Part shown: in pieces, positions 1 to 31,200 of the stretch | How the letters are laid out: each line of letters starts with the position of its first letter | Numbering within the stretch: position 1 is the first letter of the stretch | NCBI GenBank assembly: GCA_037833965.1 | Contig: AP031352.1 | Span: forward strand, 29,762,501-29,826,500 | Reading direction: 5' to 3' | From: Marchantia polymorpha subsp. ruderalis | Taxonomy: Eukaryota > Streptophyta > Marchantiopsida > Marchantiales > Marchantiaceae | DNA: 64,000 bases | The notes under the pieces: generated by a model | Seen by the model: only the letters and a program-made list of their open reading frames with translations | Told to the model about the DNA's origin: nothing | Databases searched by the model: none | Made by a program: the position numbers and the translations under genes

Positions 1-702
1 CCCTATGCGCAGAAGGCGCCGATGTCTCCAGAAGAAGACAGGCGAACTGACAGTCGGCCGACTGCGAGTCGGGCGACTGAAAAACGGCCAACTGAGAAGC
101 GCGTTGAACCAGACAGCAGGCCGGAAGCAGAAGGGAGTTTGGCTGAAGAGCCAACAACTCTCAGAGGGTCGTCTTCGGCAGAAGGCGCTTCTGAGAAAAC
201 GCCTCCAGCAAGCCGGCCAAGTAGAGTAAAGACGCGCAGGGTGGATCCGACTGCCAGTCGGACAACTGCGAGTCGGCCGACTGCGAGTCGGTCAACTGAG
301 AGTCGGCAAGAGTCGCCGACTGCGGATCGGACCAGGCCGGCGACCATTGTGCGGGCGCCTTCGGCAGACACACCTCCGGCGAAGACATCTTCCGCGCAGA
401 TCGCGCCGGAAGAGCAGGCAGTAGAAGCGGACGGTGCAAGGGTGACAAAAGTAACTGCGGAGCCGACCCCTTCGAGAACCGAAGATCGAGCCGGAACAGG
501 GGCTCAGGCAGTGGGATCCCCCACTGCCTTGGATATTTTAGCAGGGAGTGGAGCGGAAGTCGCGGCGGAAGCTGCCGCGCGCCACAGTTCCAGAGAGTCG
601 CCAAGAGATTCTGTGGCGACTCAAATCCTCGAAACAGAGGATGAGACGAGTTTGGAAGAGCAGGAAGCGGACTCTGTGCAGAAGAGGTGGAGATGCAACT
701 AG
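1..702 (+). CDS. 5'-partial GC-rich low-complexity ORF, probably retrotransposon-derived
   Basis: The frame is open from the window edge; the first ATG inside the window is at 22 and the stop is at 700-702 (about 226 residues from that ATG). The product is extremely rich in Arg, Ser, Thr, Glu, Pro and Ala and contains a degenerate repeat of the type TASRxTASRPTASRSTESR near residues 80-95, encoded by tandem copies of a GCGAGTCGGNCGACT-like unit (about 60-80 and 255-310). No catalytic motif, signal peptide or membrane segment is visible. It overlaps the next ORF by 16 nt in the -1 frame, so the two probably once formed one reading frame or are joined by frameshifting. LTR-like, TATA-containing DNA follows. 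I do not recognise the family; a mobile-element origin is an inference from repetitiveness, composition and context. Confidence 0.4.
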   Translation, partial: PYAQKAPMSPEEDRRTDSRPTASRATEKRPTEKRVEPDSRPEAEGSLAEEPTTLRGSSSAEGASEKTPPASRPSRVKTRRVDPTASRTTASRPTASRSTESRQESPTADRTRPATIVRAPSADTPPAKTSSAQIAPEEQAVEADGARVTKVTAEPTPSRTEDRAGTGAQAVGSPTALDILAGSGAEVAAEAAARHSSRESPRDSVATQILETEDETSLEEQEADSVQKRWRCN

Positions 703-1088: not shown

Positions 1089-2569
1089 AGTAGCAGGTAG
1101 CGCAGCGTAGTGTTAGTTAGGACCTTAGAGGGTATAAAGTAGTTCAAGGCGTTTTGCCTTGGGACTCTTCCAGTTTCGGAAGTGCAGATCAGGAACTCAC
1201 TTTCTCGGCGTGTTTGTGCATTTGGTCCTGGCACCACGTAGAGGAGCTGCAGCATAGTGAAGTTACCGCATGTTGTAGCTGAAGGCCTTCGGCTGAATGT
1301 TCAGAGCTAGTACACCGGTTAGAGACTCGAGTAGTGCGGATCTGCACCTGCGGGTGATTTTTGATGCTCAGAGCCGGTTGCGAGTTAGATACTTGAACAG
1401 TTCCCCCTTACTCCTTCGAGTGACATATCCTGATTGTACTCATACGGGAAGTTTCCCCTGAATGCCAAAGTGAAGTTTTGTTACTTCGTGTAAACCTTGG
1501 TTATCAATTCAGGTTATGTGTGTGTGTTACTGGATTGTGTCTCAGTTGAGTTCTCAGTCAGACCTGTACTCTCTGCGCTTAGTGTGAGTCGAGGGTGACG
1601 TCCACCGCGTATGAGGGACTTCGTTCCGAAGTGGGAAGTCCAATCCGGGTTCCCTACGCTAGCAGAAACTGGCGGAAGGGCTGTAAAAGCCGGAGTGGAG
1701 GTCACTACCTGCAGAGCCTCTGAGTGAACTTTTGAGATACTTTCCCCCTGAAATCCTAAGCGGAGGTCCTGACCGACCTCCGAGCTGTGCTTTTCCAGTT
1801 TCAGGTGTGTGTGTGTGTGTGTGTGTTGAGTGACTTACGCTGCACTGTGCATCCTCCGAGCATCCTCCGAGTCGAGCATCCTCCGAGTGACCTCCGAGTC
1901 GAGCATCCTCCGAGTGGCCTCCGAGTCGAGCACTGCAGTATTTCTGGGAGTGACAGTCGCCTGAGAATTCAAACTCTCCAAAAGTCTGTTAAACGTGACA
2001 CTTTGTACTCTGTGTGTTGCCTCTGTCCCTGTGGGTTCGATCTTTTTACCACCATACTGCAGTTTTAGCCTTTGGTGGGTTATTACACAACACGCAGGTC
2101 CCATGATCCGCACAAGTCCCAGTCCCATGAGTGAGTCCGATGGTTTTCGAAGATTCGCAACCACCAAGTTTCTCAAAGATTCAGCACAATTCGAGCCAAT
2201 TTCGGGATTGAAAAACACAGCGACTTCACTCTGACATTCTGGGATACTGTTTGGATTTCAACTCATTGATATGAGTGAAAGATTTTGGCAGTCCTACGAG
2301 TACATTGAAGCTGTGATTATGAGCTGCGAGCTCTTGGGACTTTATACACCAGTTTGGTGGAAGTGAAGGAAGCGGTGGTGAAGAATTCATCGCACCTGCA
2401 GTAGCTTTTACCGGATCCTATTCCATAAATCAAGCTTGAAGAGAAGGGCTTTTCCAGACAGGAACACCCATTGCCAAGTAAGCGTTTGGCCAAATGATGT
2501 CACGCAATTCCAGTCCCGCCTTCATGTACGACTCGAAGACCATACGAGGCAATCCGAAATGCACTAGAG
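1089..2569 (+). other. Non-coding, LTR-like region
   Basis: No convincing gene is present. A TATA-like box (GGTATAAAGT) lies at 1131-1140, just downstream of the retroelement-like ORFs, as expected for a 3' LTR promoter. A (GT)n tract lies at about 1807-1829 and a tandem array at 1850-1930. A TG start at about 1111 and a CA end at about 2090 would give a 0.98-kb LTR, but the second copy is not in the window, so the boundaries are guesses. On the minus strand 2430-2624 reads as a 64-residue ORF with coding-like character that crosses the repeat edge at 2570. Confidence 0.3.
1850..1930 (+). repeat. Short tandem array of a CATCCTCCGAGTCGAG-like unit
   Basis: Four to five imperfect units built from CATCCTCCGAG and GACCTCCGAGTCGAG alternate over about 80 bp, directly after a (GT)n microsatellite. 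The array sits inside the proposed LTR downstream of its TATA-like box. Its function is unknown. Confidence 0.75.
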
Positions 2570-2681
2570 TGTCGTGCGACTCAGTATCGCCATACATCAT
2601 ACATCGCTGACATGCTCTACTCACAACTCACACATACATATACAAGGAACGAGAGTGTCCACACACAAAGGTATCACAACT
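2570..2681 (-). repeat. Second copy of the putative LTR start (repeat B1)
   Basis: This segment is nearly identical to 2974-3085 (one visible change in the CATACATA/CATACACA region). On the minus strand it begins AGTTGTGATACCTTTGTG, the same LTR-start sequence that follows the polypurine tract at 3086-3096. The two copies flank the 292-bp repeat A, giving the order B-A-B. This could be a tandem or partially duplicated LTR, or an insertion within the LTR. Confidence 0.8.
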
Positions 2682-2972
2682 AAAAATGTCGAAACACAAA
2701 TACACGAAGAGTCGAGCCAAACTCACTACTCGTAGGTAGACTAAAAGTCGAAGCTAAGGGGAAAAAACCCCGACGCGTAAGGCTCAACTCGAAGAACTGA
2801 CAGTTCTTCGAGCTAGCCTTGACTATAACCCGCGGTCGACGACCCCAACGTGCATGGCGTCCCAACGTGCAGGGCGTTCCAACGTGTACTGCGTCCCAAC
2901 GTGTATCTACCCTCAAACTCAAATATAACGTGCCTGAACTCAAATCCACACTAACGTCTCGAGCCATGACAG
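2681..2972 (-). repeat. Repeat A, left copy (LTR-like), with 17-bp tandem units
   Basis: This segment is a direct repeat, about 90 percent identical by eye, of 13106-13379. On the minus strand it starts TGTCATGGCTCGAGACG and ends in GTTTCGACATTTTTA. It contains four 17-bp units of the form CCCAACGTGCATGGCGT (about 2842-2911), each with an ACGTG core; the right copy has three. With B2 (2974-3085) it may make up a 403-bp LTR. Confidence 0.75.
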
Positions 2973-2973
2973 C

Positions 2974-3085
2974 TGTCGTGCGACTCAGTATCGCCATACA
3001 TCATACATCGCTGACATGCTCTACTCACAACTCACACATACATACACAAGGAACGAGAGTGTCCACACACAAAGGTATCACAACT
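2974..3085 (-). repeat. Putative 3' LTR start of the gypsy element (repeat B2)
   Basis: On the minus strand this sequence begins TTGTGATACCTTTGTG directly after the purine run at 3086-3096, the configuration expected for a polypurine tract followed by the 3' LTR. It duplicates 2570-2681. No copy was found to the right of gag, so the assignment as an LTR end is an inference. Confidence 0.6.
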
Positions 3086-3243
3086 CGCCCCCCTAGCTGG
3101 CGGTCAGGTCCCTCTGACTCCCAGGTAGCCCTATCTACAACTACATGCTATGCACCTTCGTGGGTGCGCAAACCAGTAGGCCGGGTGCTATGTCGCCCCA
3201 TCGTTAGTCGCCTATCTGCAATTCATAACATGTGAAGATCAAG

Positions 3244-3750
3244 TCATCTACCCTCTGAAGTACATCGAGGACAAATCCACCGTCCAGTAGGAACAACATC
3301 GATAGGTGGAGTCAAGCACAACATGTGCCATCCCCTAGAACACCTATCACACACCAACATATGGGCCGCCTGATCAATTGACCCACATAACATGCACCTC
3401 AAGCCGGCACGTACAATCGCCAAGCTTGGGTCCATAGTACCATCCACGTTTGGGAGGTGGCATGGCGCACAGTTGCGCACATGATCCCTATAAACGACAC
3501 CGTCACGACCCTCCAACATGAGAACTCCAGAAGGTAACACCTCTCGCACTCGCAAAATAGTGCGTCCTGCTGTCACATCCAACGTAGTCTGCAGTCTGCT
3601 GTAAGTAGACGTAGTCTCCCACACGGAACCTACGAATCGATGGTCAATAACCTCCTCCCCGGATGGTTGCATACCGCAACGTATCCCGGTGCTGAGCAAT
3701 CGCAAGGTTCTCAAACGCTGCAGGCATAACTCTTTGAAAGAGCACTGCAC
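3244..3750 (-). pseudogene. C-terminal part of the retroelement polyprotein: post-integrase linker plus PHD finger
   Basis: This frame continues the polyprotein beyond the integrase core after a frameshift near 3750; only part of its first residues is in the authentic frame. After a linker resembling the usual integrase C-terminal SH3-like region (about residues 60-105), residues 119-163 form a complete C4HC3 PHD zinc finger. Its ligands are CMLC, CDRC, HMLC and CPRC, with the conserved Trp before the last Cys pair (WICPRC); the PHD codons are 3396-3262. PHD fingers commonly read unmodified or methylated histone H3 tails. In many plant Ty3/gypsy elements a chromodomain occupies this position, so the PHD may direct integration to certain chromatin. 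The frame ends in TGA at 3244-3246. The PHD call is firm from the ligand spacing; the targeting role is inferred. Confidence 0.85.
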
Positions 3751-4755
3751 GTTGAGAACACACTATCACCCACATATCTGGATCATCAAGGTTCACCACC
3801 TCGCTAGACTCACGACGAATCGCTGCCGGCAAGTCTGGATCTCGGCCGTACAATAGAAAATATGGTGAAAACGAAGCCAAGGATGTTTGACGACTGAATC
3901 GATATCCCATGGCCAACCATGGTAACTGAATATCCCAGTCCCCAAGATGCCCCTTCTGTAGGCCATACTTGTGCAACGCTCTCTTCACCGTCTGTACCAT
4001 CCGCTCAGCCAAACCATCCGCCTCTGGATGATCTCGGGAAGTAGTCCGGTGATCAATCAGCGTCTTGTCACACAAGACTTGAAACTCACCCTGAAACTCT
4101 GTCCCCTGATCGGTCAACACCTCAGCTGGTGCACCAAAGTGACTAAGCACCCTGTCAAGGAAAGCATATGCTACTCCCTCACTCGCCTTGTCAGGTAATG
4201 CCACCAACTCAATCCACTTGGAGAAATGCTCCACCATCACCAACACATACCGATGATGTCGTGCATTCAAAGGTAGTGGTCCAGAAAGTCCAAACTCCAA
4301 CGGTAACCCAATCCCATGATAGGTAAAGGATGTAACTCTGGTGTCGGGGCATTGAACGATGCCCTCACTCAATCACAAACCATGCAACGTGATACCAACT
4401 GCTGTACCTACGTATGCATACCACGCCACCAATACTGACCTAGGAGTAAGCTATACGTACGCTTTACTCCAAAATGTCCCAACTCCTCATGAGCATGCCT
4501 CACAATGCGTGCTCTCTGAGTTGGATGCGGTACTACTCGTACCCTACCGTTCTCCCACACTCGGAGAACATGTGCTCCCTCCAATCGGTATCTCTTCGCC
4601 CGCTGGAGAACACGATCTCGCTCCTTGGCATCCACTGTGCCTGGCACCATACTGGTCCGTAAGAACTCCAACACCAACACATTATCGTGAACATCACGCT
4701 GGTCCACACCACCATCCTCAACCTCAGGATCCGAAGACTTACTATCTACTCTCTA
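3751..4755 (-). pseudogene. Integrase (HHCC zinc finger and DD35E core), degenerate
   Basis: The zinc-binding domain shows HAHEELGH with a following YWWRGM (codons about 4497-4411) and then CMVC (Cys codons 4386-4384 and 4377-4375). It is interrupted by TAG at 4408-4410 and TGA at 4369-4371. The first catalytic Asp lies in WSLDF in one frame; a frameshift near 4285 moves the rest of the core into another frame. There the second Asp is in LTDQGTEF (codon 4111-4109) and the Glu in DGLAERM (4006-4004), separated by exactly 34 residues, the DD35E spacing. The YGRDP motif typical of gypsy integrases follows. The enzyme would insert element cDNA into the host genome, but this copy cannot be translated as one protein. 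Confidence 0.9.
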
Positions 4756-6375
4756 ACTAGAGTAAGATGTCAAGTGATCCTCACTGCTAGAGGCTCCACA
4801 AAACCAACACATGAAGGCAGATGCATGCCAACCGGGCACCATCTCCTCATCAATCTCACCATGCCACCTAGCTCCAGTGTCATCCTCCTGGCTAGTGCAT
4901 GGGTTCCGACTCAAACCGTCGGCATCCAGGTTCGCAACTCCAGGCCTATGCACCACATGAAAGTCGTACTCCTGTAAGATGATAGCCCACCGTGCAAGCT
5001 TCCCTATGAGCTTGTCAGACTCCATCAACCACTTGAGCGATTGATGATCGGTAACAAGGGTAAACTGCGAACCAAACAAGTAATACCTGAAGTGTGCCAC
5101 AGCCCACACCGCTGCCAAACACTCTCCCTCGTACGAACTATACCGCGACTCTGCTGCATTGTTCGAACGACTAGCGTACGCAATCACAAACTCCTTGCTC
5201 TCATCATCACACTGCGTCAACACCGCTCCAAGTCCCAACATACTCCAATTAGTGTGCAACTGGTATGGTCGACCTCTGATAGGTCTCCTCAAGATGGGAG
5301 CGGCCACCAACCTGGCCTTGAGCTCAACAAAAGCTCTCTCCTGCTCATCTCCCCATTGCCACTCCTGATCCGACTTCAACAACTGGTTCAAAGGCTTCGC
5401 TATAGCACTGAATCCCTTCACATATCTCCGGTAATAGTTCGCCAAATCCATGAACGCACGAACTCTACTCACATCCGCTGGACGAGGAATGCGTGCAATA
5501 GCCTCCACCTTTGCTTGCTGAACTCCCAAACCACCTGGGTAGATCACATGACCCAAGTACTCCACCTTCTCCTGGAAGAACCTACACTTCCCAGGATGTA
5601 ACCGCAGACCATGAGCCCTCAACCGCTCAAGCACAATCTGCAAATGTATCTGGTGTTGCTCCACCGTGTCGCTAAACACCAAGATATCATCGATGTAACA
5701 TCTGACGAAATCTAGCCCCGCTAGAATCCTGTTCATCACTCTCTAGAACTCGGCAGGTGCATTCTTCAACCCAAAGGGTAAGAATCGCCACTGATACAAA
5801 CAATCCTTGCCGTGCGAGTTGACACCCTAAAACGCTGTCTTGGCCTTGTCCTCCTCCCGAATCGGCAACTGATGGTATCCCGCCCGAAGATCCAAAGTAC
5901 TAAAAATCCTCGCATGTCCACCACATCGAAGATCTCCTCAGGTGTAGGCATGGCATACTTATCGGCCTTCGTCTGCCGATTGATAGGACGGTAATCTCCA
6001 CACATTCGCCTATCCGTGTAGTTGCCATGTACATCCTTCTTCGCTGGCATAACAGTGGCTGAAGCATACTCACCATGCGACAACTCCACTAACCCAGCCT
6101 CCAATAACTCCAACGTCCGACTCTGAATCAAGTCCCTTTCCATCACTATATCGATAGGGACGACGGAAGATTGGCGTATCACTAGCCAACTCTATCCGTA
6201 TGCCGGGTCCAATCAAAGTACCCAACTCCTTCATACTGAAGGCAAAACAACTCCTATAGTCACGTAGGAATTGTATCAACCGTCGCCTCTCTCCTCCGGT
6301 GATCTGAGAACCAATCGATGGCTCCCACTCCTCCTCCATGGACCCACAAGAGGGAGGCGATACTGTCACTGGTTG
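4756..6375 (-). pseudogene. Reverse transcriptase and RNase H of the Ty3/gypsy element, degenerate
   Basis: The RT shows in order a GDYRPIN motif, an LDLRAGYHQ motif, FLPFGLKNAP, and the catalytic YIDDIL (codons about 5697-5680). The connection domain has the gypsy ANYYRRY motif (about 5440). The RNase H contains SYEGE and VTDHQSL and ends with the LDADGLSR motif. Its first catalytic position reads LHTNWS at about 5250, where Asp is expected, so the active site is damaged by what would be a GAC to AAC change. Frames change near 6190 and 5890, and TAG stops lie at 5827, 5743 and 4753. RT would copy element RNA to cDNA in the cytoplasmic particle. Identification of the family is secure from the motifs; activity is excluded. 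Confidence 0.93.
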
Positions 6376-7566
6376 CTATGACACCTCCTCCAAAGGAGGG
6401 TTCTCCGTACCCTCCTTCGTAGCAACCTCCCCGTGACCAACATCTCCAACTGCATGGGCGTATACTCTCGCAAGTCCTCTCGTCACGTCCCATGAACTCC
6501 AAGGATGACGAATATCTTGCAAGTAGCCCCCAGCCATTGCCACTACCGTCCCGGTAGGCAATGAGCTAATAAGTGGTGTAACAACCATCAAATCTGCGCG
6601 CAAACGGCGTTGCTCGGCCAAACCCAAGCTCACAATCCACGTCAAGCAGTTCATGTCCATAGCTTGACCCAAAACCTGACGACGTGATGCATCTGAAACT
6701 GAAGAAGCCGCGGTCACACCAGTAAGAAATCCCATCGCACGCTCTCTTTCATCAGCGTTGAGCTCCACCAACTGATGTAGGGTACTGTCCCACAGTAGTA
6801 CAGGTCTCCCATCACGATATGCATGTGATGCCGGATAACTGACCAACGTAGGCAAAGCCATCCGAGGCTGACCTACGTGGTTCACCGATGCCATGGGTGA
6901 GCTATCCGCCACTCTCACCACCTGAGAGGTTCGAGAGACATCTAAGATCCTGTCAACGGTGAGGGTATGATCACGATGCACAGAATCATACGCATGACGC
7001 AATATCTCTCGTGGTACAAGGTTGGTCCATCACAAACGTGCACGATGAGCACGTGAACCAACCCTCGCAGCATCCAACAACACTGCTGATCCAATACATG
7101 CCCTGACCTCATGGACACTCGCCATCAACTGGGCCCGAGTGTCACCCAACAATGGTACGTTCTCTAGAATGTATGCGGGAGAACGTGTCTACTACTCTTG
7201 GAGATGACGTAACACTCGTAGCAACTCCCAAAACATCCAAGATCTCGGGTCATGTAACCTTGCTCCATGCCCAGCGCGTGTGTGCCCCTGACATGGCCAT
7301 CCCGCAATCACCAAATCGATATGTCCAACTCGATCGAGGTCTGGCGCCCCCAGCAATGAAATGTCTGAAGGCAACGCCTTCCGGTATCCTTGAACAGCTG
7401 ATCGCGACAACAACAAAGGAAAACGCTGCATCAACTGTGTAACATGTCGTGAAGAAACCCGACGTGCAGTCTCGTCCTTCTCCACGTACAAGAATACCTG
7501 ACTGCAACATTGCAGCCAAACCCGTGCTGATCCCTCCAAAATGATCCAGCAAACAAACACCCTCTG
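6376..7566 (-). pseudogene. Cytosine-C5 DNA methyltransferase domain inside the retrotransposon, degenerate
   Basis: The conserved C5-MTase motifs occur in the standard (non-permuted) order. Motif I is LLDHFGGISTG (about 7551-7519) and motif II VEKDE (about 7490). Motif IV is GWPCQGHTR with the catalytic Cys codon at 7293-7291. Motif VI is the canonical ENV (7164-7156), followed by RAHRARL-stop-WTNL (7050-7018), which resembles the AHRxRYxW segment of DNMT3/DRM enzymes. Late motifs are ERERAMGF and LGQAMDMN with TWI (about 6770-6635), corresponding to IX-X. The domain would transfer methyl from S-adenosylmethionine to cytosine. It is broken by a frameshift near 7492, TAG TAG at 7194-7189, TGA at 7032-7030 and a later TAG at 6376. 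It lies between protease and RT in the pol reading direction, so it was part of the polyprotein. The non-permuted motif order argues against plant DRM and for a DNMT3-like or DNMT1-like origin; the exact source is unresolved. Confidence 0.88.
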
Positions 7567-8695
7567 GGGAATACTCCCATACGATAGATGTAGTAACTAA
7601 TGGTGATAGGGTGCTAAGACCACATACTAGCCGACCACCTGAGACTCGCTCTGCCTCTGCTGGTAAAGAGGCCTCACCCCAAGCCTTCTTCACCAACCTA
7701 TCAACCTCCTGCTGTAATGCGTGGCAAGAACCCCAAAGTGGAACATCCAAAGATGATGACACTGCCGCTGCGAGACTCACCATCTCCTCCACCTCCTCAT
7801 AGACTGGAGTATCCTCGGCTGACCTGTTCCCCTCCAACAAGTCATCAGGCCAAGTGAGCACTCCACTGAAACCCGCAATAGAGGCTAAAACTGCAGGAGA
7901 AGATCCAAGAGGTCGATCTCGAGAAATGAACCTCACAGGCAACTCACTCATACGTCCATCACCGGACTCCCAACCAGGGCGATAAGCTGCCGACTCCGTC
8001 CAATAATCCATCCGAAATCCCATCGGATATAACACCGCTCCACCAACAAGCACATCATATGACTCAACTGATGTCACCACCGCTCGAACTCCAAACTGCG
8101 AGCTATCCTGAGCATGACCATGCTTCAACTGCACTGATATGCGCTCTCTGGTCATCCTGTACGACCTGTCGCTGGTGCCACCGAGTGATGTCTGAATCTG
8201 GAACGGACAAGGCTCCAACTCGGACCTCCGAACTCCCAAACTAATGCATGCAATCTTGCCCAACATCAAAGGCTGTGCACCAGAATCCAGCAACACTCTG
8301 GCTGGGACATACACCTGCCCTGTAGCACTCACCAAGCGAAATACACCGCTCCGGTTGTCCACCATACACACACCAAGGACAACCCTCTCCCTATCAATGG
8401 CTGGTCGGGCTGGCAAAGACTCCATCCGTGCCGTTGCCGCCTGCCATGTCGACTCATCGCTCGATAAAGTCGTAGAGGATAGCTCCTCACCAATAGTCTC
8501 GCCTATCTCGGCACTCGTAGCAGTGATACTCCCACGTTCACAGAACGTGGCTGCTGCACAAAAAACCCGAGCCAAGTCAATCCCAGAGTCCATCAGCTCC
8601 ATAGCTGAAAATAATGGAGATCTCATCACTGAGCTAGCCATCCGCGTCACTGCACTAGATGGTGTGTCCGTGTCCACCACACGTGACGTAGATGT
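7567..8695 (-). pseudogene. Retropepsin-like aspartic protease and linker of the gypsy polyprotein
   Basis: The frame shows the retropepsin active-site motif VLLDSGAQ (DSG codons 8287-8279) preceded by beta-strand sequence YVPARVLL, with a downstream SYDVLVGGAVLYPMG segment like the flap and second strand pair of Ty3 proteases. It would cleave the Gag-Pol polyprotein. It is in the same frame as Gag and is separated from it by TAG codons at 8774-8776 and 8696-8698. About 200 residues of unrecognised linker lead into the methyltransferase without a stop. Confidence 0.82.
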
Positions 8696-8776
8696 CTAAG
8701 TCCTCCCACTAAGGTCACTAGGTGGTACAGGTCTCATGGATGAAGTACTGCCCACCTCTGACAACAAAAACGACTA

Positions 8777-9433
8777 GGGAAGTCTGGCCTGATGCCCACC
8801 CTCACCCCTCTGAGGATCCAACTCCCCTGTCGCACCGCGTGGCTCTAGAGCTCGAGCTGCACCTCTAGTCACTGCAACCGATGCCTCCACCTGTGCTGCA
8901 CTCGCTAGATAAGGGAAATCCTCTTCCTCGTAAGAGGTGGAAGTGCTCGCCCCAGAACTCACCATAGCAGCAAGCCTCTGCTCCAACTGCTCAATACGAG
9001 CAGCCATCGCGCTCTCTGTGGACGAAGTAGCACTCGCTATAGGACGTCCAACTACACCGGCACCTCGACCACCTCTACCAGCACGGTCACCTCGGCCTCG
9101 AGAAGCATCACCACCACGACCTCTACCACCAGATGTCAACTCTGGATGAAGATCAAAACATCGATCTCGAGTATGACCTACTCGACCACAGTGGTCACAC
9201 ACCACCTGTGCTGACTGGGGTTTGGCCTGTGAACTCCGATCTCCGGCCTCCTGGGGACAATCTCTCCGCCGATGATCCCCTCCACATGTCCAACATGCTG
9301 GTCCCTGCTGCTGGCCAGCAAATGAGGGCACTAGTGCACGTGCCCCTATATCTCTAGCGGCTGTCTGGTGTCGTGTCTGCACTCCGCGACCCCCACCACT
9401 ACCACCATCAAAGGGTCTAGACTGTGCCGTGCT
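8777..9433 (-). pseudogene. Gag C-terminal nucleocapsid region with two zinc knuckles
   Basis: Directly after the TAG at 9434-9436 the same frame continues with a first knuckle, CWTCGGDHRRRDC (CX2CX3HX4C, 9295-9257). A second knuckle, CDHCGRVGHTRDRC (CX2CX4HX4C, 9199-9158), follows. Next come a Gly/Arg-rich stretch (SGGRGRGGDASRGRGDRAGR) and a short coiled-coil-like helix with EQLEQRLAAM. This is a typical RNA-binding nucleocapsid arrangement. The same-frame continuation shows that the TAG is a nonsense mutation (for example from CAG) or a readthrough stop, not the natural domain boundary. Confidence 0.85.
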
Positions 9434-10411
9434 CTACGGGACACGAGAGTTAGTGGCTGCGTCTCTAGTGAATGAAGAAGTCACCACTCTCTCCTCCACT
9501 ATGTTAAGCTCAATCTTCTCAGAAAGAGCAAACACATAGGCCAATGTCGGTGACGCATCGCTCAAGAGGGTAGCATCCTGAACCCTCCGCCGTAGCTCTC
9601 TGTCCAGTATCCTGTACCAATACTGGACCGCCTGTGCCTCAGTTACACCGTGAGTAACTGAGATCAACCGCCGCATACGCGTGTATGCCTCCCGAAGACT
9701 CTCACCAGTCTTCCGCTCAAACTCCTTGAGACTCCTCAACTTCTCCGTCCTCACCCCCTGATAGTTCTTCCTCAACCTCTTGAAGAACTCAAGAATGGGG
9801 CTGAACGAAGGTACGCCAGTAGTCTCTCCACTCGTGCTGGCAACGCCAACAGCACCGCTGGTGGTACCTGCTCCATTAATAGCATCGGTGATGCTACCAC
9901 TCGCACCTCCACTGGTACCAACACCATCCTGGGTGATCGACATATAGTTTGGAGACCAATGACGCCTCCATGCGTCAATCTCCACAGCATACTCTCTCCC
10001 AAACTCATGGTAGTCATCCATGGGAGGCCCCTCTAGATGCTGAAACAACCCCTTCCATGCAAAGAAGGGTGTAAACAACGTGGGGTTACGCAAGAACTGC
10101 ATATCGCACCACGTGTCAAACTCCTGGATGAAATCATCCAACTCAATGGTGCCCACTGCACCAGAGTACCGCCGTGGGCCCTTCATGGCCCCGTACATAC
10201 CGTCCATGTCCCCAGTCCACGAGTGTGGGACCCTAGATGATATCACCACCAAAGATCCGCTATCTGCCACACCCCACGCCTCTGCAACCACTGATGCGCT
10301 AGGATGAGGTAGCCGATACCTCAACCCACTCGGCGTAAATCCTCCACGGTCCTCAACGGAACCACCAAACTCCTCCGTGATGACTGACTCACCAACCGGC
10401 ACCACTGCCAC
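9434..10411 (-). pseudogene. Gag capsid region of the gypsy retrotransposon
   Basis: The 325-codon frame starts with an ATG at 10411 and stops at TAG 9434-9436. The region around residues 205-290 (FKRLRKNYQGVRTEKLRSLK, FERKTGESLREAYTRMRRLI, AVQYWYRILDRELRRRV) matches the helical retrotransposon Gag capsid fold (the retrotrans_gag type), and the nucleocapsid knuckles follow in frame. It would form the virus-like particle. A Ser/Thr/Gly-rich insert at about residues 160-195 (TDAINGAGTTSGAVGVASTS) is low complexity. The upstream region to about 10.96 kb is probably 5' untranslated sequence. Confidence 0.85.
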
Positions 10412-13105
10412 AACTCCACCTGCCCTCGTCCCTGCACTAACCTGCTCTAGCCCTACTGACTATGGGTATGGGCAACCTAACCTGTCATCACCGCAAGAAG
10501 ACTCTCATGGTCCACTGGTCATCACTCCAGTCTCACCATGAGAGAAACAAAGATAGACGCCGGTGATCAAATCCAGCCGCACTATCGACAGCACACTGGA
10601 GTAAAACTACTCCGGAAATCAACGTCAACCCAGACATGGGCGCGCATCAAGAAGCCAGACTGGAGAGGATCCAAACACAAGAAAAACGGCTAGCAACGAC
10701 TCTCCAGCCGAAATGAAACACAACACAACACAGAACAACACAACACACGGGACATCGCCTCGCATCGCGACCCCGAGTCGAACTCCATCGCCTCCTATCA
10801 TCCTCCGCCTCTCGCGCCTGCAACGCTATCTCGCTCATCCCGTCGCAAAAAAGGGAATCCACGCCGAGCTGATCCGTACTTCGCCTCATACCTCCACTTT
10901 TTACTATAAATAGAGGCAAGAAATGTAACAAGCGTTCATCTACTCTAATCGTTCCCATAAGAAAAGAGATAGGGATAAAGTATGTGCTTTCATCACTTCA
11001 ACCAACACATACACTAATCACTAAAAACTCTAATATAATGTTGACCACGTCATATATATAGGAGTACAATGTTTTCGCAATCAAAAAACCATAGTAAGTG
11101 AGACGAGTGCAAATTCTCAGTCTCTTCAGAATACTACTCTTCTCTCTTCTTTTATATATATATATATATATATATATTTCGTTAATGTTTTTTTTTTCTT
11201 AAGATAAGAATGAGAATAATTCTTATACAAGAAAGCCTACATTATACGCTGTCCCAAAAACTGTGCACAACGGTTGACCTCACTTCTCAAGTTCCTATCT
11301 GGACTCCAAACCTGTTTTATTCTTGCTCAAGAACAAACCACGGTTTTTCCACGGCAACCTCTTCTGTCTCAAATATTAGTGTTGCAGTACACTCAGGTTT
11401 GTTTTTTTTGTTTTTTTGTTTTTTTTTTTGTTTTTTTTGTTTTTTTTTATTTTATTTTCTACAGCGAGAGTACAGAAACAACTTCGCTTCGCTCCCACCA
11501 CCTTTTAGTTCGCTATGCGATAAATTTCAAATGCACAATGAAGTGCCTTGTCAGCGTGCGTTTCCTTACAATCCTAATATTTCCTTCTCTTCATAACTAG
11601 ACTCAAAAGTTCATTGGCTCTTCCCTGATCTTCCTCTGTTGACGGTGCAGGCATGCAGCACGAAGCCATGGTCAAACAAAGGCTACTTGTATTTCCAATC
11701 AGCGGGTATCTTGGGTATACATAGGCCTGTGAAGCTGCTTCTTCAAATCACGAGAATATACCTCTCAAATCATAACTGTGAAATCCGCTGTCGGCTGTCA
11801 AAACCATGCAAAACCATCTTCACTTCATGCCTACGACCCAGCTTAGGCTCAAGCATCGATGCTGCATTGTTCCACAACAAAACAAGGTCTCATCTGGGAG
11901 ATTATATGTGTTGAGTAAAGTACACCATGAAAATTCGAGGAGATCGGATGACTGCTACTAAAACAGATTTCTGAATATTTGAGAGTTGATATTCCGGTGT
12001 AAAAGTAACTCCTTGCTACACCAATCCCAAGAAGCCGAGGGCTAAACACGACTTGTGTCACTAACACTGAAAAGCATTACTTTTGGTGAAGATGGCGGCC
12101 TCCAACTCGGAAGAGTTCAGGCTCAGCTATAGATAATATTTGAAAATCTCAGCCTCCATGTCTGAGCTGCAGAAATTTCAGCTTCTGATTGGTGGTGAAC
12201 TTTGTCACTGTATAAACCTTTGCTTTCGTATATATCTCGTCGGCGGATCAAACAAGCATTGGACCAGCTTAGTCTATGATCCCAGGCATCGAATGAAGGC
12301 ACACCGGGGCACCTTGGGCAAGCAGAGTTGGTGCTCGTGGTTCGCACCCGCACCTTAAAGACTGAGGTCGATCATCAACAGTAAATCTACCAGCAAGATA
12401 CGATCTTCACCACCATTTATTAACTTCACTTTGCGGGATATTCACTCCTTGCTCAGCTCATTCACACCTTCGGGTTTGACTGATCGATACACGGTTCAAC
12501 CCAAACCTGCGAATGTGGCAACATCCTTCGCAAGCTTTTCCTGCCTGCTATTCACTGTCTTCCACGCTCAGCGGTAATGCAAGATCACCTAGTGTCTAGA
12601 CTATCGAGAGGACTTGCAAATAGCAGGATGGGTTCTCAGAATGGACTGTGCTACACCGCCATTGATCTGATGCGTTTCTTGACACCATGACGTCGAAGGC
12701 GATGGAGAGGAGAACGAGATGAGTCCCAAGAATCTCTTCGTTGTGCAGAGTCTTTCACCTTTGAAGACGACGATGTGGGTGCTCCTTCTGCTGCTGCGTT
12801 GTCAGAGCAAAACAAGACAAAATCCTCCGCGTGCTCAAGATCCTCCTTTTTTGAAGGCGAACCCCAACATTAAATTGCAGGCTCTGTCAGTGATGTCGCC
12901 ACTTGCTCATCTCGTCCCCTCCCCATGCTTGTCGAACTCCCCCTCATCTTGTCAGCTCCGTCACGCCATTCCGAACCTCGGGTCTGTCCAAATGCTGAGC
13001 AGAAAATTCGGAAAATTCTAAAATGCTACGCTCTCTAGCAAAAACTCCAAACACTGTCACGAAAACTCTCTAAACACGAATACGGGAGATACGGAGTTCT
13101 TCGAG
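10412..13105. other. Non-coding: retroelement leader, simple repeats and unrecognised DNA
   Basis: A plus-strand TATA-like box (CTATAAATAGAG) occurs at about 10906-10917. A (TA)n tract lies at about 11154-11177 and a T-rich tract (TTTTTTTG units) at about 11399-11456. No copy of the LTR-start repeat and no initiator-Met tRNA primer-binding site was seen next to gag. A possible gene remnant at 12.66-13.02 kb is listed separately. Nothing else could be supported. Confidence 0.5.
12660..13030 (+). pseudogene. Possible fragment of a host gene next to the right repeat
   Basis: One plus-strand frame reads coding-like, acidic and Ser-rich sequence (DESQESLRCAESFTFEDDDV from about 12717, then SAAALSEQNKTKSSACSRSS). 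It reaches a TAA at about 12870 and continues in the same frame with further coding-like sequence to about 13020. No domain is recognisable. It abuts the retroelement repeat beginning at 13106, so it may be a captured or disrupted gene piece. The evidence is only amino-acid character. Confidence 0.22.
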
Positions 13106-13379
13106 TAAAAATGCCGAAACACAAATACACGAAGAGTCGAGCCAAACTCACTACTCGTAGGTAGACTAAAAGTCGAAGCTGAGGGGAAAAACCCCGACGC
13201 GTAAGGCTCAACTCGAAGAACTGACAATTCTTTGAGCTAGCCTTGAATATAACCCGCGGTCGACGACCTCAACGTGCATGGTGTCCCAACGTGTACCGCG
13301 TCCCAACGTGTATCTACCCTCAAACTCAAATATAACGTGTCTGAACTCAAATCCACACTAACGTCTCGAGCCATGACAG
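13106..13379 (-). repeat. Repeat A, right copy (LTR-like)
   Basis: This is a direct repeat of 2681-2972, 10.4 kb away and in the same orientation, bracketing the gypsy element. It has three rather than four of the 17-bp ACGTG-containing units. The flanks differ: the LTR-start repeat B, present on both sides of the left copy, is absent here. It may be a remnant of the 5' LTR or a solo insertion of a related element. Confidence 0.75.
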
Positions 13380-13411
13380 GAGTCAGATGGTATATTTCAC
13401 GCACTTCAAGC

Positions 13412-25288: not shown

Positions 25289-28200
25289 ATGGCAGACGAT
25301 GTGCAAGCCATGATATTTTACTATGCGCGGATTGGATACGGCCAACACATACAGAATTTATGTTCTAAACACCTCCAGAAGCGCCCGAAGGATGCGGTGC
25401 TAATATTTTGGCATGTACGAATTTTGTGAATCTCGGGCTTTCTTCGGTTTCCTCTCCATGATCTGCAGAATGTGGCCCCAAGTTCTATGTTCTGTTGTTT
25501 ATGCATCTCCTGATGATAAATAATTATCAGTTGTCTCTTCAAACACTTGAATCTCACCTCATCCTTAGACACTGAACGATCTGCTCATGAGAGGCCCTTC
25601 CAATGAAAATCTGATGTGGTCATGGTCTTAGCTTTCCCCCTGTCCAAGATTCTGGGCTGATGATTGAAGTTTGCCTGGGAGCCTGGGTTCTTTGTCACCA
25701 TTCCATGGCGCAAATGCAGGCTTTGCTGCTCAAGCTTTGTAGCCTCGCTATCGTGTTTGTTGCTTACAAGGACGGCGATCCATTCTGGTGTTGTAGGCCT
25801 TTGGACTCATCTTGGAAGGTTCCTACGCTGACGCCTTGCAAGAACTGCAAGGGGTAAGTGAGCAGAGGGATGTTGAAGTTGTTGCGGTCGCTGCAATGCT
25901 CCATGCACACCGTCTTTGTGCTAGCGTTGACAACGAAGAAGTCGAAAAGCTCGAGCAAAGATTGCGGGTTGTCGAGAAGTGCGGTTCGGAAAGGGCACTC
26001 TACCTTGCTGCAACGCTGTACCTATATCTCGGCGGAACGAGCAACGTGAAAAAAGCGAAGGAGCTAACAGCTAAGTAAGTGCCCATATACTGCGGCTAAA
26101 TGTATGTGGAATCCAAGTACACCCAACCTTGCTCATAGACAGGTGAGTCACGGGCTTCTATCATCCTGCCCCCATGGAGATTTTGAGAACTTTTATCGCC
26201 GTCATTGACAGGTGTCCTCCGAAGGTACGTTTCCAGCAGAACATCCTACGTGTTCTGCAGATGGTCAAATCACTGATGGTATCACAGGAGCACGTATGGA
26301 ACATTTGTTGCGTCCAGCTGATTGCCCGACGTGTAACTTTGAAATCTGGAAGATTATCGTAAACAATCAGAGGCCGTGTATTGGGTCGAAGATTAGAATC
26401 TTTTACATTATGGTTCTAGATCTGATCGTTATTTTGAGAAGTACTCTAAAATATGATGACTTGTTTTGTCTAAGGATATTACAAATCCAGCCACATTATG
26501 TTCCTTTCGAGTGCTTGTCAGCCTGGATTGGACTTGAGCTGGAAAGTGAAAGAAAGAAGACTTCCGAGAATACCAGTCAGAGCCAGAGACTGGATTCGGA
26601 TTGCATGGAGGCTTCCCTGCATGTGTTTGATGAAGTGCTTGGACGAGGGAACTGCATTGATGCTCTTATTGGAAGAGCTTACTATTATGAGCTCAAAGAT
26701 GAGTTTGCGAAGGCGATAGATGAGTTGAATCAAGTACGGAAGATTCGCAAAAACATCAACACCTATATACTTTTCAGAGTTTTGAGACTAAATTTATGGA
26801 TAACCTGTAAGGAAGTCCCCTTAGATTCAAGAAGACCATGAGCCTCAAAGAATAGTCAATGTTTACTGTTTGAAGCAGGGAGCATAGGAAGGTAATCAGT
26901 TAATCTTGGAACTGAGTGTGGCAGGTCATTGTTGCATATCCATGGTATCTACCAGCCTTGTGTGAGAAAGGAAGGTTGGGAATGCTGCTCCAAGACTGGG
27001 ATCTCGTACAGGAAACATCACAGCTCATTCTTCAGAGGGTAATCTGTGTTGCTCTTGATCGAACCTGTTACAGAGCATCTCACCATTAACACTCTGCGTA
27101 CAAAGGAAGAATGTTTTGTGTATAGGAATCACTATTTTAACACTTTCCTCGACCATATTCTGATGAACATATGCTTGACTGAGTGAGGATGATTACGTGA
27201 GGAGTGAACGTTTTAGCCGTGACCTGACCCATTTGCCCACAGGTTTGAGTGTAAGCAATAAAGAGTGTAGCTAGTGAACTTTGGGTCTGTTCCTTGTCAT
27301 AGTACAATTGAAGATCTAGAATCTCACAAACTTGTGATTAACCCTTCGATAGGATCCCCACAACATCGAAGGTTTGCGCTTGACCATCCACGTGATGCTA
27401 TGTATTGGGACTGAGGCAATAAATGCCACAAACGTACTGGACAAATTACTAAGGACTATTGAAGAAAGAGAAACGTGCAATGGAAATCTTTGTCTTCAAG
27501 GTATTTCCGTCATTGCTTCAACTGTAAATGGTCCTTCATACGCGTTACATTTGAGATGAATATTTATTCAATCTCAGCGGCTATTTGTATCAAAATATAC
27601 GACATTCTGAAATCTCTGGAGACTTTTATGACAACAAATTTTGTCTGTCCGCGGATTTTAACAACAGGAGAAGAACCTTGTTGTGGCCTGGAATTGCTGC
27701 TATCTAAAAAAGTGACTCTGCGAGGTTGACGGTATCCAGTCTGGACTAAGTGCAAGGTGTATGTACATTTGCAGTTTCGGCCCCATTGGCAAGAATCGCA
27801 GGAAGAGGCTGCCCATCTGTCTTGCGCAAAACTTTGGCTCTTATCAAGAGAGCAGAAGGGCTGCTACCGAAGCATGCGCAGCTCTTTATGGAGATGGCAG
27901 ATCAAAACTTTTTGGTGGGAGATTATAAAGCAGCACTCGAGAACTACAGGTGAACCTTATCGTGCGATTTGCTTTGAGAGAAACCCAGGGCGTTAACTTT
28001 GAAGAAGATGGTCCTTCGTTGTTATCGAAAATATAATTCTGTTCACTCGAGATCTCCAGAATCCCTCTGTTCCAGAAGAGGTTACTTTGATCATTTAGTG
28101 AAGCACTGAAGTCTGGAACCATCTCGGAATACAGGTTAGCGTCTCAACTGGATGAGCTGAGTATGGAACCCATGTATGGGTCCGTTCAGTGTCTACTTGT

Positions 28201-31200
28201 GCTTGGTGAGGTTGAAGAAGCAGAGCAACAGCTTGAACTCCTTGTGGAGATTTCTGTTTCAATGGGAAAATCAGCTAGTCTTTGTTACGTCATGGCTCAA
28301 TTGGTTTGGAAGAAAGAAAAAGATTACAGCCGTTGTCGAGACCTCCTAGCCGAGACTATCGCACTGCAGAGTAAGGTGAAGCAACTAGTGTTCAACTTGT
28401 TGCGTGTTAGCAAGGACGTGAAAGATTCTTTTAACCTTGTTCTTCCTCATAGCAGCAAGTGGTCGATAGGCTAGTGTGATATATCCTTCAGGAGAGGGAC
28501 CATGCCTTCATAGCGTCAATTTGACAAATTTGGCTCCCTACATTTCAGTTGTAGTTACTATAGAGTTAGGTACACCCGTTATCGCAGTATCATATTGTCG
28601 CAAATACGCGCTTTGTTGTTTACATCAAGTGCAACATCGTAAACCATTTCTCTACACGGCTGCAGGTCACGACAAAGAGAAAAGATTACAGATTTTACAC
28701 CGAATTGAATCCTGATAGGCTTCGTAGCATCGCAAATCTCTTCTTGGTCCTGTCCAGATATGTTTGCAAGGGTATATGCGTGGACCGAAGCTTCTGTTTG
28801 CAGCAAAGCGTGCTTCTGCTGGAGCTGGTCCTAGATATTATACCCGGCCATTTGACAGGGTACCTTATGCTTGCTGAAGTCCAAATTCAACTCGATGAAT
28901 TCGACTCAGCTCAATGCACTCTGCAAGCAGCTCTTGGCCTCGATCACACGTTTGCAGCTGCTCAGCTTCTACTGTCCCAGGTCTGTCTCTTAGACCGTCG
29001 TGGTTTAAGAGAGAATCACCTGATTGTGACGTTTATGGTTGAAAGCAACAGATTTAATTGGTAAGAGCGGCCGCTTGATCCATCGGAGAATGTTCTTTGC
29101 CCGTCCATTAACAGGTACAAGTCCAGCTTAAGAATTTTGATACGGCCAGGCAAAGCTTGGAACAGGCTTTGAGTGACAATTTCATGGTTCGTGAGACCGT
29201 GAAGTACCATGTAATCCAAGCCCATATACTTTTACATTATAAGGAGAACGAGGAAGCTTTGAAGGTAATTCCATTCTATCGCGGACCACGTCTATGGTAG
29301 AAAGAAGCCATTACATAATGTGTTTCGCAGCTACTTGATGGAAAACTAATATTCAATAATTTAGAGAGACTCCATGTATATTTCGGTCTTTCTGTTGCAT
29401 TGACGTACGTCTGTACATACTGACTACGACTCCTTCCATAATACTTCCATTATATCTTCCTCGTGAAATAAAATTTCTTAGCAATCTCAGTTCCTGATAG
29501 GTAGATTAATAAGACGACACCCAGTACATCTGGCTTGCTTTTCTAGTCGGGTGACAAAGCTCTTCTCGGTTGTTAAAAAAAACTGGCATTGACTTGTGAC
29601 AGGTTCTTGAATCAGCGATGTTCCTACAAGGAATGAAACAGGTCTCCACAGACATGTACGAAGCCTACTATTCAAGTACTGACCTAAACGCATTGGGACA
29701 AACAGCTGACAGTGATCGTGTGCTCGTGTACTTGCTGTTAGCTGACGTTCACATGCGATTTGGCCATACACTTGAAGCTACGAAAACCATCCAAGATGCT
29801 ATGAATGAGTTTATGGGAACTCCCGAAGAGGTAGTGGCAATCTTGTGCTGCACAGCTCCGCAAGCAGTGCTGGGTGATGCTGTGCATCTTATGTCTTCGT
29901 CTCAACAATGCTCTGTCGAACTTACTCTCAGCAAAGCTATATACTATTATACTTAATTGCAGAAGAGACAAATCAGAGCAGACCACTTAGATGGGATGGG
30001 TTTTGCAGACTGCGAGAAATGGAAGTGCACAGTATATTTCTAACAAATATCTAAACCGATTGTCACCCGGTAAAAAATCGTATAGGTTAGTTTGGCTTTT
30101 TCTGTCTTGTCTCATTTTAATCTTTACACCTGATCTGTGCAAGTGGTTTCGCTTAGTTGCTAACAAACAACATATCCACCGTTAAAGGGTATTCACATGC
30201 GTGGCAAAGCAGGCGCAAGTTGTTATTGCTAGTGCCAAATTGGCTCTACAAAGAGACGAAGTGAGTAAGGCTCTTGCTATACTCAAACAGGTAAAACTCG
30301 TTGTGTGGATCCTCTTTGTTAATTTATTCTTCGCGAACGTTCTTACCGTCTGTTATACCACCCTCTACTGGTCAATGCTTAAAAGCATTGTGCGAGGTTT
30401 CACCGAAGGCATTATGCGTTTTTTAACAGGTTCCAGTCGAGAGCATATACTTTATCAAGGCAAAGGTGACTATGGCAGACATTTACATCAATCACTGGCA
30501 TGACAAAGCCATGTACGCAAACTGCTACAGGGAATTGGGTGAATTCTTTCCTAGTGCCAAGGTTATTCATTATCTTCACTCTCGTGCTCCTTCTGCCCTT
30601 TTTTTGTGTTTTCTTTTCGCTTCATCAACATGTTCTGGATGTGGATCATAAGCAGCTTGAGTATAAGGTTTTCAGTCCAGCTCTGCATAAGCTGATTGTT
30701 CCGTCTTGCTTGTTGTATTAACTTGTGACTATGAGTTATCCAGACATTTCTTATGCTTGGTGAAGCGTACATGAAAGTCGATGACTTACATAAAGGAGTT
30801 GAAGCATATGAGTCAGCGATGAGAGAAAGCCCCAAGGATGGTAGCGTAGCAGCTCAAGTTGGGAAAGCTCTATTTACAAGCCACAACTACGAGAAGGCCA
30901 TTGAACACTACACTGCCGCCCTGCAAACCGTTGATGAGGGGGTTTGGAAACTTGTATTATATTATGACCTAGCAGGTAAGGATTCATGATATAAATCATC
31001 CAAATTTAGTGTGCTTACTTTTATCTTTGGCGTATCTTCTTGCAGATAACTCAGAGCGTTCAAAAACCCTTCGACCAATGTGACTCACCCATGCGCTACT
31101 TCATTCAAATAAGTGAACTTTTCACCAAAAAAAAATTAGTAGTAGCAGGCGTTGTCGGCTGTTCTTTATTTTGTACGTCGGCGCCTGCATAAGATTGTAG

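What the first reader, a model, noticed from the sequence alone, without database searches (positions are those of the whole stretch)
3244..10411. Ty3/gypsy retrotransposon that combines a DNA methyltransferase with a PHD finger
One minus-strand polyprotein contains Gag, protease, a C5 cytosine methyltransferase, RT, RNase H, integrase and a C-terminal PHD finger. A DNA methylation writer and a chromatin reader in one element suggest that it could both choose its chromatin target and modify methylation of its own or host DNA. Methyltransferase-bearing retrotransposons are, from memory, known in dinoflagellates and the streptophyte alga Klebsormidium; I know of no described element that also has a PHD finger, or of one in a sperm-bearing land plant. 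All the domains are read directly; the biological meaning is inference.
Basis: partly seen in the sequence, partly recalled or inferred. Interest (0 to 1): 0.95.

Follow-up and report, generated by a model that had tools for sequence, protein, structure and literature searches.

The report
Liverwort retroelement with methyltransferase and PHD
A family of jumping genes in a Marchantia liverwort carries both a DNA-methylating enzyme and a chromatin-reading domain, has end repeats that suggest it inserts from DNA circles, and often carries pieces of the plant's own spliced messages near its front end.

Summary
The window carries an old, broken copy (about 2570-13378, minus strand) of a many-copy Gypsy-type retroelement in a Marchantia genome. 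Better copies encode Gag-protease-Dnmt3-like methyltransferase, one in-frame UAG in a tobacco-mosaic-type readthrough context, then RT-RNase H-integrase-PHD. Both extra domains are under purifying selection (dN/dS 0.12-0.19 between subfamilies). The combination is not unique: 126 of 276 proteins scanned carry both, several from green algae, though no paper found describes it. Closest described element: KnitGypsy-Dnmt3 of Klebsormidium.

(1) There are no ordinary LTRs but DIRS-like split repeats, A-body-B-A-B. The polypurine tract precedes B, a likely self-priming site follows A, 20 of 21 B|A junctions read GACA-GC-TGTC, and 14 of 15 copies have exact 4-bp target duplications. The inserted form is thus a circular permutation of the expected cDNA, suggesting that the integrase opens circles at an internal palindrome. 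(2) Between primer site and gag, 4 of 5 examined copies carry host sequence as exon-like blocks; missing canonical introns were verified in two. Functions of methyltransferase and PHD remain inferred.

The parts
13379..13382 (-). upstream target-site duplication, CTCC on the element strand (3 of 4 bases match the downstream CTCT)
13106..13378 (-). A1, left split-repeat arm, starts TGTC on the element strand; contains a hairpin with AGTTCTTCGAG
   Evidence: 91% to A2
13095..13105 (-). putative self-primed primer-binding site CTCGAAGAACT, reverse complement of an 11-mer inside A1
   Evidence: 11 nt, 0 of 2000 random positions as long
11662..13051 (-). cargo made of host transcript fragments (blocks from three host loci; 12320-12988 from one locus lies inside a second)
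   Evidence: GT-AG introns missing at 3 of 3 junctions tested in this copy
10460..11132 (-). 5' leader, conserved in large part among copies
9440..10174 (-). Gag
   Evidence: (weak Pfam match)
9101..9265 (-). zinc-knuckle stretch (two Cys/His motifs read by eye)
7961..8350 (-). aspartic protease (DSGA motif, recalled; no Pfam match here)
6595..7570 (-). C5-cytosine methyltransferase, Dnmt3-like; PCQ, ENV and RxR motifs; broken frames in this copy
6376..6378 (-). in-frame UAG between ORF1 and ORF2, followed by CAACCA (fits CARYYA)
5359..6195 (-). reverse transcriptase
4939..5358 (-). RNase H
3980..4548 (-). integrase (zinc finger plus rve core)
3247..3411 (-). PHD finger at the polyprotein C-terminus
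3086..3094 (-). polypurine tract GGGGGGCG immediately before B1
2974..3085 (-). B1 repeat, ends GACA on the element strand
   Evidence: 99% to B2
2972..2973 (-). GC spacer in the palindrome GACA-GC-TGTC between B1 and A2
2681..2971 (-). A2 repeat
2570..2681 (-). B2 repeat, right end of the element (GACA); base 2681 can belong to A2 or B2
2566..2569 (-). downstream target-site duplication, CTCT on the element strand

Best explanation
This is one decayed copy of a large Gypsy-type retroelement family with a Dnmt3-like methyltransferase and a C-terminal PHD finger. SHOWN: the domain order, the UAG, the repeats, the 4-bp target duplications, and introns missing from host sequence in the leader. 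INFERRED: the transcript starts in A1 and primes itself, its 5' part annealing to the site just after A1; plus-strand DNA starts at the polypurine tract before B1. The cDNA therefore has B-GC-A repeats at both ends. It becomes circular, and the DDE integrase cuts GACA^GC^TGTC inside a repeat. That gives 3' CA ends with 2-nt 5' overhangs, like ordinary integrase 3' processing, and inserts A-body-B (one-repeat circle) or A-body-B-GC-A-B (two-repeat circle) with a 4-bp duplication. Template switching during reverse transcription adds spliced host mRNAs beside the primer site. The MT lies before the probably leaky UAG, so it should be made at Gag levels and packaged, to methylate the new cDNA; the PHD, fused after integrase, should guide insertion to a histone state.
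For: Split repeats: A1-body-B1-A2-B2 in L031, L034 and the window and, once A1 was located, in L036 and L037, so 5 of 5 copies studied. Within a copy A1/A2 are 99% (L031), 91% (window), 88% (L034) alike, against about 73-82% between these three; within one subfamily different copies are 89-100% alike. Of 30 PHD-end loci 27 had the tract-B1 anchor and 20 of these a B2 (B1/B2 83-100% alike); 20 of 21 B1|A2 junctions have GC, one AC. Duplications exact in 14 of 15 copies for which both ends could be read, 3 of 4 bases in the other, 3 of 4 in the window and L034. Five A-body-B copies have exact duplications. Self-primer match 12, 12 and 11 nt, 0 of 2000 controls as long for each. UAG in all 22 alignable MT loci of 30 (one of them is L036) and in L031, L034, L037 and the window. 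dN/dS of L031 against L036 or L037: MT 0.12-0.13, PHD 0.16-0.19, RT 0.08-0.10. Missing introns: 7 of 10 junctions GT-AG, 2 CT-AC, 1 neither; displaced controls give 0.106 and 0.042.
Against: No circle, transcript start, protein or methylation was observed. A-body-B copies could also arise after insertion by recombination between B1 and B2. In L034 the primer site and A1 changed together, but both changes are CpG transitions and so weak support. L031 has CAACAA after the UAG (5 of 6 of the motif). Cargo of L036 shows no clear exon pattern; for L034 and L037 the introns were inferred from gaps, their host letters not being held. For the close pair L036-L037, with few changes, dN/dS is higher (MT 0.26, RT 0.69). 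The Pro of the MT's PCQ motif is often Glu in distant relatives. C-to-T change at CpG (0.035) barely exceeds that at other C/G sites (0.029) between L031 and the window, so no sign of strong CpG methylation there.
Confidence: 0.72

Rival explanations
1. An ordinary LTR element whose repeats were scrambled by recombination between neighbouring copies; the split arrangement is an accident.
For: Rearranged copies exist (L032, L033 align to L031 over only part of their length).
Against: Same arrangement in 5 of 5 copies studied, including two subfamilies with very different A; polypurine tract before B1 and primer site after A1; target duplications at A1 start and B end.
Confidence: 0.05
2. A DIRS/PAT-type element inserted by a tyrosine recombinase, with the integrase only a passenger.
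For: Split direct repeats A-body-B-A-B are typical of that group; de Mendoza 2018 made the same comparison for KnitGypsy-Dnmt3 (PMC5890265).
Against: No tyrosine recombinase (PF00589) among matches up to E 0.1 in the two ORFs of L031 and L036; 4-bp target duplications, which that group is recalled to lack; integrase constrained, dN/dS 0.07-0.08 between subfamilies.
Confidence: 0.05
3. Integration from linear cDNA: the integrase trims both internal GACA-GC-TGTC sites of a linear B-A-body-B-A molecule to give A-body-B, and A-body-B-A-B forms come from concatemers or later recombination rather than circles.
For: A-body-B copies with exact target duplications exist (5 copies).
Against: 20 of 27 anchored loci carry a B2 after A2, which needs end-to-end joining of cDNA ends before insertion.
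Confidence: 0.18
4. The 5' cargo is host DNA acquired by DNA-level events, not captured mRNA.
For: One of ten junctions shows neither GT-AG nor CT-AC; L036 cargo blocks are single.
Against: Nine of ten tested block edges coincide with canonical introns missing from the cargo, against about 0.11 sense and 0.04 antisense in displaced controls; L037 has five consecutive blocks at 98-100% on one locus, L034 two.
Confidence: 0.05

Closest known systems
KnitGypsy-Dnmt3 of Klebsormidium nitens (de Mendoza et al. 2018, PMC5890265; section 9 and passages seen)
   Same: Gypsy enzymes, Dnmt3-type methyltransferase in the polyprotein, repeats arranged as in DIRS (their Fig. 4 legend), purifying selection on the MT.
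   Different: Its main text does not mention PHD, Marchantia or readthrough; in the parts seen the repeats are noted but not explained. No K. nitens sequence was compared here.
SymbioDIRS-Dnmt3 of Symbiodinium (same paper, passages)
   Same: Dnmt3 in pol and A-coding-B-A-B repeats.
   Different: Tyrosine recombinase instead of DDE integrase; DIRS class.
Chromoviruses (Gypsy elements with a chromodomain after integrase; PMC6317226, passages)
   Same: A chromatin-reading domain fused to the integrase C-terminus.
   Different: PHD instead of chromodomain, plus a methyltransferase and split repeats.
Tf1/sushi and Tcn1 self-primed elements (PMC6317226, passages)
   Same: Primer-binding site complementary to the element's own 5' part.
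   Different: Those have ordinary LTRs (recalled); the start of this RNA is unknown.
Gene-transducing plant LTR elements such as maize Bs1 (PMC7264820, passages)
   Same: Host gene sequence carried inside the element.
   Different: Here different cargo sits at the same place, near the primer site, in several copies.

Membership tests
Ty3/gypsy (Metaviridae-type) retrotransposon | RT-RNase H-integrase order with H2C2 and rve domains | tested here: met
   L031 and L036 ORF2
Ty3/gypsy (Metaviridae-type) retrotransposon | identical LTRs on both sides, primer site after the 5' LTR, polypurine tract before the 3' LTR | tested here: not met
   A1 alone on the left; tract precedes B1, not A2
Ty3/gypsy (Metaviridae-type) retrotransposon | RT groups with Gypsy in a tree | not tested
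   no reference set was fetched
DIRS/PAT elements | split direct repeats | tested here: met
DIRS/PAT elements | tyrosine recombinase and no DDE integrase | tested here: not met
DIRS/PAT elements | no target-site duplication (recalled) | tested here: not met
   14 of 15 exact 4-bp duplications
KnitGypsy-Dnmt3-like elements | Dnmt3-type MT in a Gypsy polyprotein | tested here: met
   best solved match DNMT3A, E 5e-8. No MT tree was made
KnitGypsy-Dnmt3-like elements | DIRS-like repeats with Gypsy domains | tested here: met
   wording of the Fig. 4 legend
KnitGypsy-Dnmt3-like elements | common descent with the K. nitens element | not tested
   no entry named Klebsormidium in the listed hits
Chromovirus | chromodomain after integrase | tested here: not met
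   PHD and no chromodomain in L031 and L036
Tf1-like self-priming | primer site complementary to the RNA 5' end | tested here: inconclusive
   complement lies inside A1; RNA start unknown

The most novel reading that the evidence does not exclude
A green-lineage clade of MT/PHD Gypsy elements integrates from closed circles: its DDE integrase opens a palindrome inside the repeat (GACA^GC^TGTC), doing with an integrase what DIRS elements do with a tyrosine recombinase. In the same cycle it routinely captures spliced host mRNAs next to the self-primer, and it methylates its own circle before insertion under PHD guidance.
Probability: 0.4. Interest if true: 0.9.

Novelty: new variant of a known kind. 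Interest (0 to 1): 0.76.

Why it matters
Circle junctions were once proposed as retroviral integration precursors and then dismissed (recalled); this family leaves a sequence record that fits integration from circles by a DDE integrase, testable in a plant with good genetics. It also suggests that DIRS-like repeats need no tyrosine recombinase. A methylation writer and a chromatin reader in one element in Marchantia allow a direct test of whether elements methylate themselves. [quoted passage not shown] a liverwort has them in number. Some Marchantia gene models contain this MT (for example Mp_4g09160 and Mp_8g17980), which may inflate counts of host DNA methyltransferases. Repeated mRNA capture would make the family a source of retrogenes.

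Tried and rejected
The 292-bp repeat pair with a 112-bp duplication around one copy looked at first like a stray repeat or solo LTR; comparison with other copies showed A and B of a split repeat. A recurrent 'TAG inside' in PHD hits appears to be the normal ORF end falling just inside the query. The MT as nested insertion was rejected. CpG decay as a sign of methylation gave nothing clear. Viral contigs gave no match. The cargo was translated and no long intact host frame stood out. Structure prediction was not run. The ten paper searches gave, in the listings and passages seen, no MT-plus-PHD retroelement, no split repeats with a DDE integrase other than PMC5890265, and no account of this family in Marchantia; several listings were partial (25 of 59, 12 of 66, 15 of 20, 10 of 34, 12 of 137) and most subscription journals are not held, so this is no proof of absence.

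Limits and dropped rows: both copy lists are capped (150 of 850, 123 of 290 scored), so unlinked hits are partly an effect of the cap. In one search, 8 of 30 MT loci had no alignable stop region. In one search, 3 of 30 loci lacked the anchor; the 7 without B2 are the five A-body-B copies, L005 (ends after B1, duplication not checked) and L007 (A2 present, no B2). L026 and L027 share flanks and are not independent. The 15 copies were those for which A1 was listed (40 scored of 270) and both ends could be read. Of 382 hits only the best 120 were listed and used. The count 137 of 276 for MT plus PHD includes short and spurious MT matches; 126 have an MT match of 200 residues or more, and that is the number reported.
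Full report
WHERE IT IS. The window lies in a 241.5-Mb genome of nine contigs. A protein named Marchantia polymorpha (Mp_4g09160) is 100% identical to the MT of copy L031 over the query, with many more Marchantia entries below it, so the host is a Marchantia liverwort, probably M. polymorpha; subspecies was not determined.

WHAT THE WINDOW COPY HOLDS. Pfam finds PHD, rve, RT_RNaseH, RVT_1, DNA_methylase and a weak gag in separate pieces. tblastn with pieces of L031 lays the order on the minus strand as Gag, zinc knuckles, protease, MT, RT, RNase H, integrase, PHD between 10174 and 3247. The reading frame is broken repeatedly.

BETTER COPIES. L031 has two same-frame ORFs of 1362 and 1045 codons with one stop between; L036 has 1358 and 1042; L037 has the same arrangement, its ORF1 being open from the edge of the fetched stretch. 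ORF2 of L031 and L036 gives RVT_1, RNase H, Integrase_H2C2, rve and PHD; ORF1 gives DNA_methylase. The stop is UAG followed by CAACCA in all 22 alignable MT loci of 30; by their flanking letters these look like the L036 subfamily, and one of them is L036 itself. It is also UAG in L034, L037 and the window, with CAACCA, and in L031 with CAACAA. CARYYA after a stop is the tobacco-mosaic-type readthrough context (PMC4132726, passages). The expected outcome, abundant Gag-PR-MT and a rarer extension with RT-IN-PHD, is inference.

THE TWO EXTRA DOMAINS. The MT's best solved matches are DNMT3A and DNMT3B (E 5e-8 and weaker). Among 81 homologues the catalytic Cys, the ENV Glu and the second Arg of RxR are at 100% (rounded) of those not gapped there; the Pro before the Cys is not. 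The PHD matches PHDs of CHD4, PHF12, DPF, KDM5 and ATXR5; a C4HC3 pattern was found in 127 of 133 relatives. dN/dS of L031 against L036 or L037: MT 0.12-0.13, PHD 0.16-0.19 (only 16-17 changes), RT 0.08-0.10, IN 0.07-0.08, Gag 0.12-0.19. The close pair L036-L037 has few changes and higher ratios (MT 0.26 on 18 changes, RT 0.69 on 7).

LINKAGE. 60 of 123 MT hits have a PHD hit 3.56-4.85 kb downstream on the same strand, and 60 of 150 PHD hits an MT upstream, both lists being capped. Of 10 unlinked MT hits probed, 6 have the PHD, 1 only the integrase end, 3 neither; of 6 unlinked PHD hits, 3 have the MT. Some copies are rearranged or may lack a domain.

SPREAD. Three protein searches gave 274 listed relatives; with the two L031 ORFs, 276 proteins were scanned. 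126 carry an MT match of at least 200 residues and a PHD; 209 of 228 with integrase carry PHD. The searches were seeded with this family, so these are not a census. Volvox reticuliferus P0040, Monoraphidium neglectum P0220 and Chlamydomonas eustigma P0255 have both; Sphagnum fallax P0149 and Closterium P0161 have MT, with no PHD in the protein listed. The MT precedes RT in Marchantia, Sphagnum and Closterium proteins and follows it in 87 RT-MT-IN-PHD proteins, so it moved or was gained more than once. MT and integrase identities correlate at 0.59 over 7140 pairs of 120 proteins, compatible with largely shared descent.

TERMINAL REPEATS. Not LTRs. L031: A1 and A2 (298 nt, 99%), B1 and B2 (113 nt, 100%), as A1-body-B1-A2-B2; the same in L034 and the window. 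L036 and L037 have B1-A2-B2; their A1 was not within the 3 kb first fetched but lies further out (C8:3093804-3094097; C1:1928347-1928638, 100% alike to its A2). Of 30 PHD-end loci, 27 had the tract-B1 anchor and 20 of those a B2; 20 of 21 B1|A2 junctions have GC and one AC. Target duplications of 4 bp are exact in 14 of 15 copies and 3 of 4 in L018; window CTCC/CTCT and L034 CAGC/CAAC are 3 of 4. Five copies (L012, L020, L021, L025, L029) end after B1 with exact duplications. One at C5:31853 has a third A and B: A2|B2-GC-A3|B3 was read, B1 before A2 is inferred from spacing, and its duplication, GACA, equals the element's own end. The polypurine tract lies before B1. An 11-12-nt sequence right after A1 is the reverse complement of part of a hairpin in A in L031, L034 and the window; the hairpin persists in L036, whose A is only partly alignable to the others.

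MECHANISM. From the priming signals, the cDNA repeat should be B-GC-A. The inserted ends, TGTC and GACA, lie inside that repeat, so the inserted element is a circular permutation of the cDNA. Opening a circle at GACA^GC^TGTC on both strands leaves CA 3' ends with 2-nt 5' overhangs, as integrase 3' processing does (recalled). A one-repeat circle gives A-body-B, a two-repeat circle A-body-B-GC-A-B. That the DDE integrase does this is inference; the geometry is shown.

HOST mRNA CAPTURE. Between primer site and conserved leader, L031, L034 and the window share nothing, although the rest of the element is 91-95% alike. The L031 segment matches three host loci in blocks, one of them at 97-100%; the window segment three loci; L034 one in two blocks; L037 one in five consecutive blocks at 98-100%, inside the element since A1 lies beyond; L036 shows no clear exon pattern. 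So 4 of 5. Of 10 block edges in L031 and the window whose host DNA was held, 7 are GT-AG introns in sense, 2 CT-AC (antisense capture), 1 neither; with displaced coordinates the same test gives 0.106 and 0.042. The first host block starts 3, 12 and 43 bases after the primer site in L031, L034 and the window. In the window two host loci overlap by 11 nt at a switch point, as expected of template switching.

LITERATURE. PMC5890265 (abstract, section 9 and passages): Dnmt3-bearing Gypsy in Klebsormidium with DIRS-like repeats; no PHD or Marchantia in its main text. PMC6317226 (passages): plant Gypsy classes, self-priming; no PHD, methyltransferase or Marchantia in the main text. PMC6338049 and PMC7264820 (passages).

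VERDICT. A real element with real, selected extra domains, a new variant of the KnitGypsy-Dnmt3 kind; the combination is widespread in databases but apparently undescribed. The repeat logic and the mRNA capture are the more surprising parts.

Noticed in passing
window 11662-13051: Blocks of three host loci in one retroelement leader, one inserted within another with 11 nt of overlap; a match at C4:17695834 shares the segment at 95%, so the cargo probably moved on with the element.
   Followed up: partly
L038:1120-3000 (upstream of L031): Cargo includes one host transcript that seems captured antisense (CT-AC at 2 of 3 junctions) beside sense ones.
   Followed up: partly
relatives P0158, P0220, P0255, P0149, P0161: MT lies between RT and integrase in many algal-type proteins but before RT in streptophyte ones: the domain changed place or was gained twice.
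   Followed up: partly
P0250: A metagenome polyprotein whose precomputed Pfam list holds methylase, chromodomain and PHD together.
   Followed up: no
L026 and L027 (C5:12423167, C5:12477347): Identical right flanks about 54 kb apart: probably a segmental duplication carrying the element.
   Followed up: no
L032: Copy aligning with L031 only from RT on, with repeated sequence upstream (525 bp twice, 99%) and an A match about 14 kb upstream of the PHD end.
   Followed up: no
window 26209-29064: Exons of a TTC21-like (IFT139, name recalled) ciliary gene (PF25062 below its cut-off, PF25060), fitting a host with motile sperm.
   Followed up: partly
window 37891-38721: Leucine-rich-repeat frame on the minus strand (LRR_4).
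   Followed up: no
window 45-307: Short imperfect repeats (44 nt, 68-84% alike) in an open frame.
   Followed up: no
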